In this document: positions 20,092-61,165 of the stretch, one piece after another
How positions within the stretch are numbered: position 1 is the stretch's first letter
Layout: the number at the start of each line of letters is the position of its first letter
Assembly: GCA_009782175.1 (NCBI GenBank)
Contig: WRKR01000011.1
Span: 1 to 64,000 of the forward strand
DNA from: Cystobacterineae bacterium
GTDB lineage: Bacteria; Myxococcota; Myxococcia; Myxococcales; Myxococcaceae
Reading direction: 5' to 3'
DNA: 64,000 bases
Notes under the pieces: generated by a model
The model's input: the letters and a program-made list of their open reading frames with translations, nothing else
Databases searched by the model: none
Told to the model about the DNA's origin: nothing
Made by a program: the position numbers and the translations under genes

Positions 20092-21708
20092 ATGACTTTT
20101 TATGAGGCAGCACTTCAGATTTTAGCCCAAGCAGGCAAACCGCTGACATATCAGGAGATAACCAAGCTCTCTTTGGAAAATGGGCTTTTATCCCATATAG
20201 GCAAGACTCCTGAGACGACCATGTTGGCCCGTTTAAAGGCAGTGGCTAAACGCATGCACGACAAGCCGATTGTGGTGAGCTCGAAGGATACCTTTGCTTT
20301 GACAGAATGGATGTTGCCTGAGGATGCAGACGCGCTTGCTTTTTTAGATGCGCCATTGCCGTCTTTTCGCGAGGGAGTGTTGCCGCTGCGTCCTTTGGAG
20401 CGCCATCCTCAAGTGAGTGAAGAAAACGTTCGTTTCATTGGGAAGAGTTTGGAGCGCAAGCGTCGAGAAGAGGGAGAAGGGCGCAGGAGGCGGCTTTTGC
20501 CCATTTCCGAAGTGGGGTTTGAGCTTTTGTCTGCTGCCCGTTCTCTCATGGCAGATGAGCTTTTGCGTGAAGCCAAAGCCAGGGAGCTTGTCAGTGGGGA
20601 TTGTGAGGTGTCTACACTTTTGGCAGCGTTGGCTGAGGACAACCAACGCCGTATAGATGCGGGAGGGAAGCCACAATTTCAATGCCAGGAGGCAGCCCAT
20701 GGCAAATGGGAGCTTCAACTGGAGCCTCGAGGGTTTGAGCTTTCAGGCATTCAAGAAGGCTTTGCCCGGGCATTGAATTTCCAGCTTGAGAATGGGCGCA
20801 TTGTTGCTGTGAAGTCTGGCATTGCTCAGGTTGTTTCTCGGCAAAAAATGGAGGCGCAGCAAAGCAATTTGCGGGCATGGGCGAGGGATGAGCGCAGAGC
20901 CACGTGGAAATTTTTGAAAAGTTATTTAGCGGGGCTTGAGGCGCGTGTTTTTGAGAGGACAATACTCAGGCTTTTGGGAGCAGATCGCTTCCGAGAAATA
21001 AAAGTGGCAAAGCGTTCCAAAGAAGCCGTCTTGTTAACAGCAAGGAAGCGGGAAGGCAGTTTAGATCTCCGTTATACCATTCGACTGTTTTCTGGGGCAG
21101 CGTCCATAGAACGCAAACATATTCAAACGCTCCGAAGCGATCTCAACCATCACCGTGCTACATTGGGCATGCTTTGCTCTGCGGGAGATTTGCGCGGTGA
21201 AGCAAGAAGCGAAGCCTTAAGCAGTGGTGAGCCTTTGGTGATGTTGTGGTGTGGAGATGCCTTGGCCGAGAAGTTTTTGGAAGCGAGTTTGGGGGTCAAA
21301 AAACACATTATAGAGTTTTTTGAGTTTGATGAGGCTTTCTTTGAAGAATTGAAAAATGAAGTTGAAGCCATACATGCAAAACGAGAAGCACGCCTGCGTG
21401 AGAGGTTGGCATTGCCAACAGGAAACGCGGATGGTTTTTCCGAGAATGTGTCGACACAAGACAAGCCCAATGAAGGGGGAGAAGCAGCCCTTGCTCGACG
21501 CAGAAAAAGCCGAAGACGTCGCAGAGTCCGCAGGCTGTTGCCTGAAGAAGAGAGCGCTTTGCAGCCTGCGTTGGCCTTAGAGGACACCTCCACAGAGAAG
21601 AGGGTGCAAGAGGGTTTTTCTGAGAGGGCGTGTGCAGAAGCAGCAGAGCCGACGGAAGCATTGCCTCAAAGTCCACTGCCTCAAAGTCCATTGCCCCAGG
21701 AAACTTAG
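20092..21708 (+). CDS. HARE-HTH domain protein with Mrr-like (PD-(D/E)XK) region
   Basis: Residues 1-75 (MTFYEAALQILAQAGKPLTYQEITKL...) match the HARE-HTH winged-helix domain found in DNA-modifying and restriction proteins. Around residues 285-430, VFERTILRLLGADRF, IQTLRSDLNHHRATLGMLCSAGDL and EPLVMLWCGDALAEKF follow the layout of Mrr-type nucleases, but the expected catalytic D...QxK is only partly seen (GSLD...SIERK), so it may be inactive. The tail has a polybasic run (RRRKSRRRRRVRR) and a threefold 15-bp repeat giving LPQSP. It could bind DNA as a nucleoid or defence factor. Confidence 0.65.
   Translation: MTFYEAALQILAQAGKPLTYQEITKLSLENGLLSHIGKTPETTMLARLKAVAKRMHDKPIVVSSKDTFALTEWMLPEDADALAFLDAPLPSFREGVLPLRPLERHPQVSEENVRFIGKSLERKRREEGEGRRRRLLPISEVGFELLSAARSLMADELLREAKARELVSGDCEVSTLLAALAEDNQRRIDAGGKPQFQCQEAAHGKWELQLEPRGFELSGIQEGFARALNFQLENGRIVAVKSGIAQVVSRQKMEAQQSNLRAWARDERRATWKFLKSYLAGLEARVFERTILRLLGADRFREIKVAKRSKEAVLLTARKREGSLDLRYTIRLFSGAASIERKHIQTLRSDLNHHRATLGMLCSAGDLRGEARSEALSSGEPLVMLWCGDALAEKFLEASLGVKKHIIEFFEFDEAFFEELKNEVEAIHAKREARLRERLALPTGNADGFSENVSTQDKPNEGGEAALARRRKSRRRRRVRRLLPEEESALQPALALEDTSTEKRVQEGFSERACAEAAEPTEALPQSPLPQSPLPQET
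21661..21705 (+). repeat. Tandem 15-bp repeats at the end of the HARE-HTH gene
   Basis: Units TTGCCTCAAAGTCCA and CTGCCTCAAAGTCCA, then a diverged third unit, encode LPQSP-LPQSP-LPQET at the C-terminus. The reading frame is kept. They sit just upstream of the 12-bp repeat array in the next gene. Confidence 0.7.
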
Positions 21709-21710
21709 CA

Positions 21711-22634
21711 TTGCACCGACAAAGCCCATTTTTGTTTTGTGCACGGGGGTTGGCATTGTGTTGGGCATGGGGGTTGGCACGGGGGTTGGCATTGTGTTTG
21801 GCATTGTGTTTAACATTGTATTTAACATTGTATTTGGGGTGCTCTTCTGAAGCTCCTTTGCGTTATTGGCGCGTGGATGTTTCTATAGACGAAGCGGATG
21901 GGAGTTTAGGGTTGGACAAGGGGCAAGTTGATCAGTTGCTGACAAAGCGAATGGCTCAAATGCCCAACTTTAAAAAAACCGAGAAAGACGCGCAGGCCGC
22001 TGTTATGGCTTGGAGCATTTTATTGGACGAGCATTGGGAGGATGCGAATGCCGTGCTTGTTGTGAGTTTCAAGTTTGGAAAGCACTCCGAGACGGTTTGG
22101 CGTTTGCAGAAAGAAAGTTGGCTGCAAGCGCCGATACACGCGCTAAGCCTCCAAGAGGTTTATGCCGAAACAGACACTTTAATAAACGAGTTGCTCAAGG
22201 AAGCAGAGCTGTTGTGGAAGGCCAGCCAACTTAAGGATGGGCGGTTGTTGAAAGAAGCCCAGGGCCAAACCTCTCCTATGCGTTTTGCGGCGATGCAGGT
22301 GTTGTCTGCTCGAAAAAACAAAGCTGTTTTCCAAGAGGTTTTGAAAGAGCTTCAAAGCAAAGACATTGGGCGAGTGAGAAGAGCAGTGGGCTTTCTCGTA
22401 GAGCTTCGGGATGAGCGTGCAGCGCCCGCTTTGGCAGATTTGTTCCTCAGAGAAGGGCCTTTGCTGCGCCAGGAGGTGCTTTATGCTGTTGCAGCGGTGG
22501 GGGGTGAAAATGCGAAGGCATTTTTGTTTACGGTTGCGCAGGGGGAGGACGATAAGAATTTGGCCGATCAAGCCAGAGGGCTTCTAGAAGAGCTTGAAGG
22601 TGCTGAAAAAAAAAGACTGTCTATACAGCAATGA
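21711..22634 (+). CDS. Lipoprotein with repeat-built signal peptide and HEAT-like C-terminus
   Basis: A 307-aa protein starting at TTG 21711, just after the previous stop, with AGGA about 10 nt upstream. Residues 2-43 form a long signal peptide whose hydrophobic core is encoded by eight 12-bp tandem units (21738-21833; LALC, LALC, LTLY, LTLY at the end), then GC44SSE as lipidation site. The mature part has a mixed domain of unknown function and C-terminal HEAT-like helices (RVRRAVGFLVELRDERAAPALADLFLREG). Function is unknown; placement beside birA-coaX suggests no pathway. Confidence 0.7.
   Translation: MHRQSPFLFCARGLALCWAWGLARGLALCLALCLTLYLTLYLGCSSEAPLRYWRVDVSIDEADGSLGLDKGQVDQLLTKRMAQMPNFKKTEKDAQAAVMAWSILLDEHWEDANAVLVVSFKFGKHSETVWRLQKESWLQAPIHALSLQEVYAETDTLINELLKEAELLWKASQLKDGRLLKEAQGQTSPMRFAAMQVLSARKNKAVFQEVLKELQSKDIGRVRRAVGFLVELRDERAAPALADLFLREGPLLRQEVLYAVAAVGGENAKAFLFTVAQGEDDKNLADQARGLLEELEGAEKKRLSIQQ
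21738..21833 (+). repeat. Eight 12-bp tandem units inside a signal peptide
   Basis: Degenerate 12-mers of TTGGCATTGTGT type follow one another without gaps; the last four are nearly perfect pairs (21786-21833). Each unit adds four hydrophobic residues, so copy-number change alters signal length without a frameshift. Confidence 0.75.
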
Positions 22635-22652: not shown

Positions 22653-23462
22653 ATGGGCATGAGTTTCCCGGATGACTCTGCAAGGCCTGCTGAGGTGAAG
22701 CCGTTTTTGCGCACGACCTGGTTGGGAAAGAATTTTTTCCACTGGGAAAGCCTTGCTTCCACCAATACGCAAGCCAAGCTGTTGGCTCAAACCACAGGTT
22801 GCCATGGAGATGTTGTGCTTTGCGAGAAGCAAACGCAAGGCCGAGGGAGAAGAGAACGGAGTTGGTTTTCTGCGCCGGGTGGTTTATTTTTTTCTGTGTT
22901 GCTAAAGCCGCATTTGCCGGCGCACCGGGTTTCTGAGCTCACCTTGGTTTCTGCGGTTGCAGTGGCCAAAGCCCTTCGGGAGTTGGGCATAGACGCTTGG
23001 ATAAAGTGGCCGAACGACCTGCTTGTGGGCGAGAAGAAACTCGTTGGAATTCTCACAGAGCTTATTGCTGAGGGAGGAAAAACCCAAGGAGTTGTTGTTG
23101 GGATAGGTGTCAACGTCAACAGCTTAGAAGAAGACTTTCCTGAAGACTTAAAAACCAGAATGACTTCTTTGGCTATGGCTTCAAGGAAGTTTTATTCCAA
23201 AGCATTTGTGTTGGCTGTTTTGCTGAACCACCTGGAGAGTGAGTTGGATTTGCATGCGAGTGAAGGATTTATTCCCATAAGGAATGCCTGGACGATGCTT
23301 TCTTCGACGTTGGGCAAACGTGTGCGAATACATTTGGGGAATGAGGTGCAAGAAGGAAAAGCGCTGTGCATTGATTCTATAGGAGCTCTGGTGTTGGAGG
23401 GGGATGATGGCAAGCAGTTTTCCATTTTGGCAGGAGACATAGAGCATTTGAGGCTTGCTTAA
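22653..23462 (+). CDS. birA: Biotin--[acetyl-CoA-carboxylase] ligase
   Basis: Activates biotin with ATP and attaches it to the biotin carboxyl carrier protein of acetyl-CoA carboxylase. The 269-aa protein has the biotinyl-AMP loop GRGRRER (63-69), the substrate block KWPNDLLVGEKKLVGIL and a C-terminal SH3-like domain. The N-terminal HTH repressor domain of E. coli BirA is absent, so it is a monofunctional ligase that should not regulate transcription. ATG 22653 and 22659 are both possible. It precedes coaX by 30 bp, a pairing common in bacteria. Confidence 0.93.
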   Translation: MGMSFPDDSARPAEVKPFLRTTWLGKNFFHWESLASTNTQAKLLAQTTGCHGDVVLCEKQTQGRGRRERSWFSAPGGLFFSVLLKPHLPAHRVSELTLVSAVAVAKALRELGIDAWIKWPNDLLVGEKKLVGILTELIAEGGKTQGVVVGIGVNVNSLEEDFPEDLKTRMTSLAMASRKFYSKAFVLAVLLNHLESELDLHASEGFIPIRNAWTMLSSTLGKRVRIHLGNEVQEGKALCIDSIGALVLEGDDGKQFSILAGDIEHLRLA

Positions 23463-23492
23463 AATTTTTGATAAATTCAGCGAGGGATGGGG

Positions 23493-24260
23493 ATGTTGCT
23501 TTGCATTGACGTAGGGAATACCAATACAGTCCTGGGTATATTCCGTTCAGCTCAGCTGTTGGCTCATTGGCGCATAGAAACTTCAGAGAGAAGAACATCT
23601 GATGAGTGGGGAATATTATTGCTCCAATTGTTTGCGTTTTCTGGGCTTGACGCGAAGGCTGTGACGGGAATTGCCGTTTCGAGTGTTGTTCCTTCTGTGC
23701 AGCACGGGCTAGAGCAGATGGGGCAGCGCTATTTTTCTCAAAAACTTTTTTTTGTGGGCCCTGGCATTAAAACAGGAATGCCTGTTTTATATGACAACCC
23801 GAGAGAAGTTGGAGCAGATCGCATTGTCAACGCCATTGCCGCGTTTGAGAAAAAGAAACGAGCGCTGATTGTTGTGGATTTTGGGACGGCAACCACTTTG
23901 GATGTTGTCAGCTCCCGTGGTGAATATTTGGGTGGCTCCATTTGTCCCGGCATTGAAATTTCCATGCAAGCCTTGTTTCAGCGGGCAGCCAAGTTGCCCC
24001 GTGTGGAGTTTGTTCAGCCACCTTCTTGCCTTGGAAAAAACACCATTCACTCCATACAGGCGGGACTCGTGTTTGGTTTTGCGGCGATGGTGGATGGCAT
24101 TTGCGAACGCATTGCGAAAGAGAGGGGAGAAACATTATTTATTATGGCAACAGGAGGACTTGCGATGAGTTTGGCCAAGGAAAGTCGCTGCATTGAAGAG
24201 GTAGATCCATTCTTAACCCTGGAAGGGTTGCGCATTCTTTTTGAGAGAAACAGAGAATGA
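23493..24260 (+). CDS. coaX: Type III pantothenate kinase
   Basis: Phosphorylates pantothenate, the first step of CoA synthesis. The 255-aa ASKHA-fold protein carries LLCIDVGNTNTVLGIF (phosphate 1), GADRIVNAIAA (substrate block) and IVVDFGTATTLDVVS (second phosphate loop), all diagnostic of CoaX. ATG 23493 is chosen because GAGGG lies 7 nt upstream; ATG 23487, two codons earlier, abuts that site. The stop overlaps the next gene start by 4 nt (ATGA). Confidence 0.95.
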   Translation: MLLCIDVGNTNTVLGIFRSAQLLAHWRIETSERRTSDEWGILLLQLFAFSGLDAKAVTGIAVSSVVPSVQHGLEQMGQRYFSQKLFFVGPGIKTGMPVLYDNPREVGADRIVNAIAAFEKKKRALIVVDFGTATTLDVVSSRGEYLGGSICPGIEISMQALFQRAAKLPRVEFVQPPSCLGKNTIHSIQAGLVFGFAAMVDGICERIAKERGETLFIMATGGLAMSLAKESRCIEEVDPFLTLEGLRILFERNRE

Positions 24261-37831: not shown

Positions 37832-38197
37832 CGCTTCCTTCTCCAACAAAAGAGGGGCCTGCCTGCATGGCACAAACGGGAGATGCATAGCGGGCATTGT
37901 GTTTCAACGCAGTTAATGGTGTTTCAAGGCATTTAAATGTGTTTCAGCGCATTTAATGGTGTTTCAACGCATTTAAATGTGTTTCAGCGCATTTAAATGC
38001 CATGCTTGCTGAGCACAAGGTTTTTAGGGATGGATGCAGAGGGGGGCTTTATGGGGCGCGTGCAGCGCTGCCTTTATTATGAGAAAGGTGCCAGGCATTG
38101 CGCGCGCAGGTGGCTTTGTGCTTAAATTTGTGTGCTTAAGTTTTCGCTCAAACGCACAACTTTCGGCCGCTGCCTGGTTTATATGTGAGGCTTCTTC
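37832..38197. other. Divergent intergenic region with 20-bp tandem array
   Basis: 366 bp between the Sel1 lipoprotein (minus) and the secreted protein (plus). It carries the five-copy 20-bp array (37901-38000), then unremarkable sequence. No ORF was believable. Promoters of both genes should be here. Confidence 0.5.
37901..38000. repeat. Five 20-bp tandem repeats
   Basis: Exact 20-bp periodicity (about two helical turns) starting at 37901, 37921, 37941, 37961 and 37981, with the core GTTTCA(A/G)(C/G)GC and ATTTAA. There are no spacers between units, so this is not a CRISPR array. The array begins 70 bp upstream of the Sel1 gene start, consistent with a multi-site operator or a slippage product. 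Confidence 0.8.
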
Positions 38198-38956: not shown

Positions 38957-38998
38957 TCCGGTCTAAGCAGCGCTTGCCATCGACAGTCAGCCGCAAGG

Positions 38999-39050
38999 CG
39001 ATGTTTTAAGGCGATGGTTTAAGGCAATGTTTTAAGGCAATGTTTTTTCG
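38999..39050 (+). repeat. Four tandem 13-bp units
   Basis: CGATGTTTTAAGG-type units start at 38999, 39012, 39025 and 39038. The fourth merges into the following terminator hairpin. Probably a slippage duplication in a convergent intergenic gap. Confidence 0.6.
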
Positions 39051-59590: not shown

Positions 59591-61165
59591 ATGGGCATTT
59601 CATTCAATCCATTACAAACGGTTAAAGATCTCGCAAGTGCTGCAAAAGAAACGGTGTCCAATGTGGCAGACAAAGTCACAGACACCGTGAAATCAGCTTC
59701 AGACAAAGTCACAGACACCGTGAAATCAGCTTCAGGCAAAGTGGTAGACACCTTTGAAAAAGTGAGTGGTGCTGTTTCAGGGGCAGCCCAAAGCTTGGGC
59801 GATAAGGCCAAAGCTGTGGGAGAAACCGTCGGCAATGCGGTCAAAGCAACAGGAGAAGTGGTTGTTGACACGGCCAAAGCAGCAGGGGGCGCCATTGTAG
59901 ATGGGGCCAAAGCTGTGGGAGGCGCCATTGTAGATGGGGCCAAAGCAGCAGGAGAAACCGTAGGCAACGCGGTTAAAGCCGTGGGGGATGTTGTTGTTGA
60001 CACGGCCAAAGCAGCAGGAGGCGCCATTATAGATGGGGCCAAAGCAGCAGGAGGCGCCATTATAGATGGGGCCAAAGCCGTGGGAGGCACCATTGTAGAT
60101 GGGGCTAAAGCAGTAGGAGAAACCGTAGGCAACGCAGTTAAAGCCGTGGGGGATGTTGTTGGCACTGTCGTGGATACGGTGAAAGATATTGGAAATAGCA
60201 TTGGTGATGCGGTCAAAACCGCGAAGGAAGTGATCAACAGTGCGCTCAACCCCCCTCAAATAACCACAGCCGAATGGTCCGAAAAAATGGCCTTGGCTGA
60301 GCAAGGGCTCGTCAGTTCAGATCCAAAAGTACGTGAAGCGGCCGGAGAATTAAAGCAGCACCTGATTGCGCAGCAAATGTCGCTCTTGTCCTCCGCTGTT
60401 TATGAAGATCCCATCCAAGCACCACCAGGCTGGAAAGACATCAGCAGCGACCCTGAAGCCCTGAAAGCTTATGGTTTAGATCCTTCTGATCTCAACATTG
60501 AGGGAAGCGACTTCCGCGCTCGAATGTTTGTGCCGGATGGCTCTGTGCTTGGCGATTCCATGAAGCCCACCCTAGCCTTTAAGGGGACTTCCACCAAGGA
60601 AGACTGGGAAAACAATTTTCGACAAGGGCTCAACATTCATTCTGACTATTATGACAGAGCTGTGGCGCTGGGGAAACAAATTGAAGAGGCCGGCGCTTCA
60701 GACAGCATCAACATTACGGGGCACTCCCTCGGCGGAGGATTGGCTTCCGCCGCTTCTGTTGCCAGCGGCTCAGACGCTTATACCTTCAATGCGGCAGGCC
60801 TGAACGACGCCACTGTCTCTCGCTATGGCGGCACCGACAACAACCCCAATATTTCCGCCTATCAAGTCAAAGGCGAAGCACTGACGGGACTCCAAAGCAA
60901 TGTCTCCATCATGCCTGAAGCCAGAGGAACAGCCATAGAGCTTCCCGCCAATCCATTGACAACACTCAAAGGTCAACTCATAGGTAGCGCCGCCGGCAAC
61001 CTCCTGGGTAACGTCCTCGGCGGTCCCATGGGTGGCGCCATGCTTGGCACGGCAGCTTCTATTGCAGTCCCTGCCGTGCTTCACCACCTCGGAGATGCTT
61101 TTAAAGGGGGCATCAACCACAAAGTTTTGGAGTCCGAAGCCAACTTGCGCAAACTCATGGAATAG
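59591..61165 (+). CDS. Class 3 lipase-like protein with 11-residue amphipathic repeats
   Basis: A 524-aa protein. Residues about 65-200 are tandem 11-mers (KAAGGAIVDGA, KAVGETVGNAV, KAVGDVVVDTA), resembling LEA or apolipoprotein-type amphipathic helices able to lie on membranes. The C-terminal half is an alpha/beta hydrolase: PTLAFKGTSTKEDWENNFRQ, the nucleophile elbow ITGHSLGGGLASAASV (Ser near 379), YTFNAAGLN, and a likely His late. A Gly/Ala-rich segment (AAGNLLGNVLGGPMGGAMLG) lies near the end, membrane-active in look. No signal peptide. ATG 59591 follows GAGGCTAGAGG; starts at 59573/59576 are possible. Candidate membrane-targeting lipase effector. Confidence 0.75.
   Translation: MGISFNPLQTVKDLASAAKETVSNVADKVTDTVKSASDKVTDTVKSASGKVVDTFEKVSGAVSGAAQSLGDKAKAVGETVGNAVKATGEVVVDTAKAAGGAIVDGAKAVGGAIVDGAKAAGETVGNAVKAVGDVVVDTAKAAGGAIIDGAKAAGGAIIDGAKAVGGTIVDGAKAVGETVGNAVKAVGDVVGTVVDTVKDIGNSIGDAVKTAKEVINSALNPPQITTAEWSEKMALAEQGLVSSDPKVREAAGELKQHLIAQQMSLLSSAVYEDPIQAPPGWKDISSDPEALKAYGLDPSDLNIEGSDFRARMFVPDGSVLGDSMKPTLAFKGTSTKEDWENNFRQGLNIHSDYYDRAVALGKQIEEAGASDSINITGHSLGGGLASAASVASGSDAYTFNAAGLNDATVSRYGGTDNNPNISAYQVKGEALTGLQSNVSIMPEARGTAIELPANPLTTLKGQLIGSAAGNLLGNVLGGPMGGAMLGTAASIAVPAVLHHLGDAFKGGINHKVLESEANLRKLME

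What the first reader, a model, noticed from the sequence alone, without database searches (positions are those of the whole stretch)
21738..21833. Signal peptide built from eight 12-bp tandem units
The hydrophobic core of a lipoprotein signal (21711-22634) is encoded by a gapless 12-bp array, so slippage adds or removes four hydrophobic residues without breaking the frame. This may tune export or surface level, and such an arrangement is rarely described.
Basis: partly seen in the sequence, partly recalled or inferred. Interest (0 to 1): 0.6.

Follow-up and report, generated by a model that had tools for sequence, protein, structure and literature searches.

The report
Signal peptide lengthened by tandem duplication
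In one termite-gut-type myxobacterium, the export signal of an ordinary lipoprotein has grown from about 19 to 43 amino acids by repeated in-frame copying of a 12-base unit, which looks like tolerated DNA slippage in a repeat-prone genome and not a tuning device.

Summary
Bases 21738-21833 are eight gapless 12-bp units encoding CARG-LALC-WAWG-LARG-LALC-LALC-LTLY-LTLY just before a Cys, and the likeness lies in the DNA, beyond what the peptide requires. The units are imperfect (mean pairwise identity 67%). The doubtful start, TTG 21711, is well supported: in all three species of the genus the upstream gene ends in TAG, two bases follow, then TTG, with a GGA-type ribosome site upstream. The two sister species lack the array; their pre-Cys signals are 17 and 19 residues against 43 here, and the DNA difference is one 72-bp insertion, six units. 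The Cys is kept across the family, a HEAT-repeat lipoprotein next to birA and coaX.

The genome is rich in such repeats (28 arrays per 100 kb; arrays of four or more copies about four times as common as in a sister or a free-living relative). At least two other signal peptides in it carry smaller duplications absent from sisters. The best reading is species-specific in-frame slippage tolerated because signal cores are degenerate. Export tuning has no support but cannot be excluded, because no second isolate was available. The closest precedent, CTCTT repeats in the Neisseria opa leader, acts by frameshift; this 12-bp unit cannot.

The parts
20092..21708 (+). Upstream gene, HARE-HTH plus Mrr-type restriction endonuclease domains; its TAG stop (21706-21708) lies 2 nt before the start of the lipoprotein gene
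   Evidence: Pfam HARE-HTH E 7.2e-12, Mrr_cat 2.5e-8; same junction in two sister species
21662..21695 (+). 15-bp tandem duplication (LPQSP x2.3) at the 3' end of the upstream gene, absent from both sister species
   Evidence: TRF; C-termini of the sister proteins differ
21698..21701 (+). AGGA ribosome-binding-like site, 9 nt before TTG 21711; GGAGGA in G001 and GAGGA in G002 at the same place
21711..22634 (+). Gene of a 307-residue HEAT-repeat lipoprotein, TTG start
21711..21839 (+). Signal peptide, 43 residues before the conserved Cys: MHRQSPFLFCARGLALCWAWGLARGLALCLALCLTLYLTLYLG
   Evidence: translation and sister comparison
21738..21833 (+). Eight-unit 12-bp tandem array
21762..21833 (+). 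The six units (72 bp, 24 codons) extra relative to sister species G002; units 1-2 correspond to sequence that G002 also has. The exact edges depend on the alignment
   Evidence: 72-column gap in alignment A3; signal lengths
21840..21842 (+). Codon of the putative lipid-modified Cys44
   Evidence: invariant in alignment A1 of eight family members
22245..22481 (+). HEAT-repeat region of the mature protein
   Evidence: Pfam HEAT_2 26.7 bits against a cut-off of 27.7; family profile matches designed alphaRep HEAT proteins, E down to 1e-24; helical hairpins in the model
22653..24260 (+). Downstream genes: biotin protein ligase (22653-23462) and type III pantothenate kinase (23487-24260)
   Evidence: Pfam

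Best explanation
The array is a species-specific, in-frame tandem expansion inside the coding sequence of a lipoprotein signal peptide. The ancestor had a short signal (17-19 residues before the Cys, as the sister species still have) whose DNA already held two weakly similar 12-base stretches. Slipped pairing or unequal exchange added six more 12-base units in a genome prone to 12- and 15-bp tandem duplications. The change was tolerated because any unit that is a multiple of three keeps the frame, the added residues are mostly hydrophobic, and the core of a signal peptide is defined by hydrophobicity and not sequence. The CGG codons inside the array put Arg12 and Arg24 in front of the last ~19 uncharged residues, so the distal units now probably serve as the functional core, followed by LGC. 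Shown: the array, its DNA-level nature, its absence from sisters, the 72-bp difference, the conserved start, the repeat-rich genome. Inferred: slippage as the mechanism, continued export and lipidation, absence of a regulatory role.
For: DNA-level repeat not explained by the peptide. Both congeners lack it: G002 LHHPGRFLFFAWVWLLCWG|C, G001 LHGWGKILFCAWILCWG|C, with one 72-bp gap against G002 in the alignment. Start conserved as TAG-NN-TTG with ribosome site in all three. Cys44 invariant in eight aligned members. The sampled genome has 113 arrays in 400 kb, none in its shuffle; periods 12 and 15 dominate (19 and 22 arrays) and 84 of 113 periods are multiples of 3; arrays with four or more copies number 19, against 5 in G002 and 4 in G013. 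Arrays are depleted inside predicted genes and enriched between them or just upstream (crude gene models). Two other signal peptides grew the same way: a lipoprotein with LLLC repeats (20 residues before Cys against 14 in both sisters) and an S46 peptidase with LVGW repeats (28 against 20).
Against: A 43-residue signal with an internal Arg is unusual for this family (27 of 28 relatives estimated at 12-31, median 16), so processing could be impaired or changed. The residues before the Cys (YLG) do not fit the strict lipobox, though the sisters' CWG does not either. Six added units in one gene is more than in the other signal peptides seen, so selection for length is not excluded. Insertions inside aligned conserved regions were only mildly more frequent in this genome than in G002 (91 against 68) and mostly not tandem.
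Confidence: 0.75

Rival explanations
1. The array is a tuning locus: slippage adds or removes four hydrophobic residues and so changes targeting, export or surface level between cells of a population.
For: Unit of 12 keeps the frame; units 5/6 and 7/8 are identical neighbours, which fits fairly recent copying; unit number differs between species.
Against: The array is degenerate (67% mean identity), perfect runs span only about two units, the sisters manage without it, and similar arrays occur all over the genome in unrelated contexts. No isolate-level variation could be tested.
Confidence: 0.07
2. The long, very hydrophobic segment is no longer cleaved and holds the protein in the inner membrane as a signal anchor.
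For: 19 uncharged residues after Arg24, with a mean hydropathy of 2.15 in the best 19-residue window; non-canonical residue (Tyr) at -3.
Against: The Cys and the residues after it are conserved with the sisters, and the Cys across the family; the sisters also have an unusual -3 residue (Cys).
Confidence: 0.08
3. Translation starts at a TTG inside the array (for example 21774, giving MARGLALCLALCLTLYLTLYLG|C), so that only part of the array is translated.
For: Several in-frame TTG codons lie in the array and G-rich stretches precede some (sequence); MARG plus a hydrophobic core would be a normal-length lipoprotein signal.
Against: The TTG 21711 junction and ribosome site are conserved in three species, and FLF-x-A-like residues just after it are conserved too. 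In G002 an in-frame TGA, and in G001 in-frame stops, lie upstream with no other start codon between them and this TTG.
Confidence: 0.1

Closest known systems
CTCTT repeats in the leader-peptide coding region of Neisseria opa genes (PMC3899988, PMC3960869)
   Same: Short tandem repeats lie inside the signal-peptide coding region.
   Different: The opa unit is 5 bp, so copy changes shift the frame and switch the gene on or off at about 1e-3 per cell per generation (PMC3960869). Here the unit is 12 bp, keeps the frame, is degenerate, and its variation within the species is unknown.
In-frame coding minisatellites or variable tandem repeats in proteins in general (reviewed in PMC3899988)
   Same: Unit length a multiple of three, gain and loss of whole residue blocks, located in a region of low sequence constraint (own knowledge).
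   Different: The repeat sits in the hydrophobic core of a signal peptide, not in a surface domain or linker.
HEAT-repeat lipoprotein family of the same order, probably Myxococcales (no curated name found)
   Same: Conserved Cys, helical HEAT-like C-terminal half, found in 57 of 60 relatives searched.
   Different: Relatives have ordinary signal lengths; this one is the only member seen with an array.

Membership tests
Phase-variable contingency locus of the Neisseria opa kind | Tandem repeat within the signal-peptide coding region | tested here: met
Phase-variable contingency locus of the Neisseria opa kind | Unit length not divisible by three, so that slippage shifts the frame | tested here: not met
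   12-bp unit
Phase-variable contingency locus of the Neisseria opa kind | Near-perfect repeat units | tested here: not met
   mean pairwise identity 0.67
Phase-variable contingency locus of the Neisseria opa kind | Copy number varies among isolates of one species | not testable with these tools
   one genome per species is held
Bacterial lipoprotein (Lgt/LspA substrate) | Positively charged start and hydrophobic core before a Cys | tested here: met
   Arg3, Arg12, Arg24 and a 19-residue uncharged stretch
Bacterial lipoprotein (Lgt/LspA substrate) | Lipobox [LVI][ASTVI][GAS]C | tested here: inconclusive
   YLGC here and CWGC in the sisters miss the strict pattern; distant relatives have patterns such as LGAC and LAGC; the Cys is invariant in the eight aligned members
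Bacterial lipoprotein (Lgt/LspA substrate) | Lipidation and cleavage at the Cys | not testable with these tools
   needs labelling or mass spectrometry
HEAT-repeat protein | Significant match to HEAT profiles or structures | tested here: met
   Pfam HEAT_2 E 7.1e-6 but 1 bit under its cut-off; family profile against designed HEAT proteins E down to 1e-24; helical hairpins in the C-terminal half of the model

The most novel reading that the evidence does not exclude
Signal peptides of this lineage evolve by in-frame growth of their hydrophobic cores through 12-bp slippage, and the changing length sets how strongly individual proteins are exported, a graded counterpart to the on/off repeats of opa.
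Probability: 0.05. Interest if true: 0.65.

Novelty: new member of a known kind. Interest (0 to 1): 0.3.

Why it matters
It is a clean natural example of how a signal peptide can more than double in length by tandem duplication while the protein behind it stays conserved, with the unexpanded state preserved in two sister species. That makes it useful for asking how tolerant export and lipoprotein processing are to core length. If length differences did tune export, it would be a graded, frame-keeping counterpart of known on/off repeat switches; nothing here shows that.

Tried and rejected
RNA or DNA hairpin in the array: folding is no better than shuffles (z +1.4 and +2.1). A promoter or terminator at the gene junction: scans at or below chance. 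A repeat family scattered in the genome: the two-unit pattern occurs only in this array. Function from structure: AlphaFold on three sequences gave pLDDT 54 and only the C-terminal HEAT half is credible, so no fold search was run. A genome-wide lengthening of signal peptides: in the small set of orthologues with clear signals on both sides this gene is the outlier and most others differ by few residues (start choice there is crude and several rows are unusable). My own idea that the array would be hydrophobic in every frame is wrong: one forward frame contains stops. The reverse-strand ORF 21577-21828 overlaps the array; nothing seen suggests it is a gene, but it was not tested further. Literature searches for in-frame repeats in bacterial signal peptides found nothing direct.

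Full report
WHAT IS THERE. In the frame of the gene that ends at 22634, bases 21738-21833 are eight consecutive 12-base units encoding CARG, LALC, WAWG, LARG, LALC, LALC, LTLY, LTLY, followed by LGC. Mean pairwise identity of units is 0.67; units 2, 5 and 6 are identical, and so are 7 and 8. Recoding the same peptide 20,000 times with synonymous codons at the usage of sampled genes never reached that identity, nor did shuffles of codons or bases. The repeat is therefore in the DNA and not only in the amino acids.

THE START CODON. In the window genome and in both other species of its genus, the upstream HARE/Mrr-type gene ends in TAG, two bases follow, and then comes TTG, preceded by AGGAAAC, GGAGGAAGC or GAGGAAGC. 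In G002 an in-frame TGA lies a few codons upstream, and in G001 in-frame stops lie upstream, with no start codon between them and the TTG. Residues just after the start (FLFCA, FLFFA, ILFCA) are also conserved. TTG 21711 is thus the best-supported start, and translational coupling to the upstream gene is likely (inference).

COMPARISON WITH SISTERS. The signal peptide has 43 residues before the Cys here, 19 in G002 and 17 in G001. The DNA alignment shows one 72-column gap in the sisters, exactly six units; G001 lacks two further codons. The first two units correspond to sequence that G002 also has (TTTGCATGGGTT TGGCTATTGTGT), so the array seems to have grown from there. Among 28 relatives for which a signal could be estimated, sisters included, the pre-Cys length has a median of 16; the only estimate near 43 (L029, 40) probably reflects a start chosen too far upstream, since an internal ATG gives the usual 16.

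THE GENE. The product belongs to a conserved family with a Cys invariant in the eight aligned members, found in 57 of 60 relatives, with a C-terminal HEAT-repeat half, located before birA and coaX genes. The two sisters are MAGs titled Cystobacterineae bacterium Emb289P3bin65 and Proteobacteria bacterium Co191P4bin16. By inference their sample codes belong to the higher-termite gut set of PMC7024585 (paper found, codes not checked in it).

THE GENOME IS REPEAT-PRONE. In 400 kb sampled from 20 contigs there are 113 arrays (28 per 100 kb) and none in a shuffled copy; periods 12 and 15 are the commonest, three quarters of periods are multiples of three, and 19 arrays have four or more copies. The same amount of G002 gives 60 arrays and 5 with four or more copies; a relative with a 9.5-Mb genome, G013, gives 86 (17 in its shuffle) and 4. 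Using crude gene models, arrays are rare inside genes and enriched between and just before them. A second small duplication, 15 bp, sits at the end of the upstream gene, about 40 bases away, also absent from the sisters.

OTHER SIGNAL PEPTIDES. Two more in the sample carry 12-bp duplications of the core that the sisters lack: a lipoprotein (MKQFLFLLLCLLLCLLLPLAC against MRMLGILCLLFFLAC and MRMLGLLFLFFFLAC) and an S46 peptidase (MHSKRFVGLGFALVGWLVGWLVSASAWA against MHSKRLVVLGLALVSCFVWA and MHSKRWVVLGLALLNCFVWA). So signal cores are tolerant sites here, but the gene in question is the largest case seen, and there is no sign of a general lengthening.

HOW IT PROBABLY WORKS. The expansion most likely arose by slippage or unequal exchange and persisted because it does little harm: the frame is kept, the residues are mostly hydrophobic, and the CGG codons place Arg24 before a new 19-residue core ending in LGC. 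This is inference; neither export nor lipidation was measured. Rivals are a signal anchor that is not cleaved, a start inside the array, and a tuning locus.

COMPARED WITH WHAT IS KNOWN. The nearest precedent is the CTCTT repeat in the leader-peptide coding region of Neisseria opa (PMC3899988; PMC3960869), which switches expression by frameshift. This array fails two defining features of that kind: the unit keeps the frame and the copies are degenerate. It is an in-frame coding minisatellite in an unusual place. No second isolate could be examined, so present-day variability remains open.

Noticed in passing
window 21662-21695: 15-bp tandem duplication (LPQSP) at the C-terminus of the upstream Mrr-type gene, not in the sister species.
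   Followed up: yes
L039 15995-16843 (G000 contig 4): Another lipoprotein whose signal core holds a 12-bp repeat (LLLC x2.7); the sisters have a signal six residues shorter.
   Followed up: yes
L053 7586-9841 (G000 contig 19): S46 peptidase whose signal core holds an exact 12-bp duplication (LVGW); its signal is eight residues longer than in the sisters.
   Followed up: yes
L052 11149-11207 (G000 contig 18): Perfect 6-bp array, 9.8 copies of TTGCCA (Leu-Pro), in frame near the 5' end of a proteasome-family (possibly HslV) open frame; a perfect array such as this is a better candidate for active slippage than the one in the finding.
   Followed up: partly
window 59667-60119: 33-bp coding repeats (KAAGGAIVDGAKAVG-like) in a 548-residue open frame.
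   Followed up: no
window 37898-37999 and 38995-39046: 20-bp (5.1 copies) and 13-bp (4 copies) arrays; no open frame of 80 or more codons was found spanning either.
   Followed up: no
G000 contig 13 (L047 11394-12245) and contigs 22, 25, 41, 1: DUF6683-type family with six matches in this genome, none in G001 and one weak match in G002; possibly a lineage-specific expansion.
   Followed up: partly
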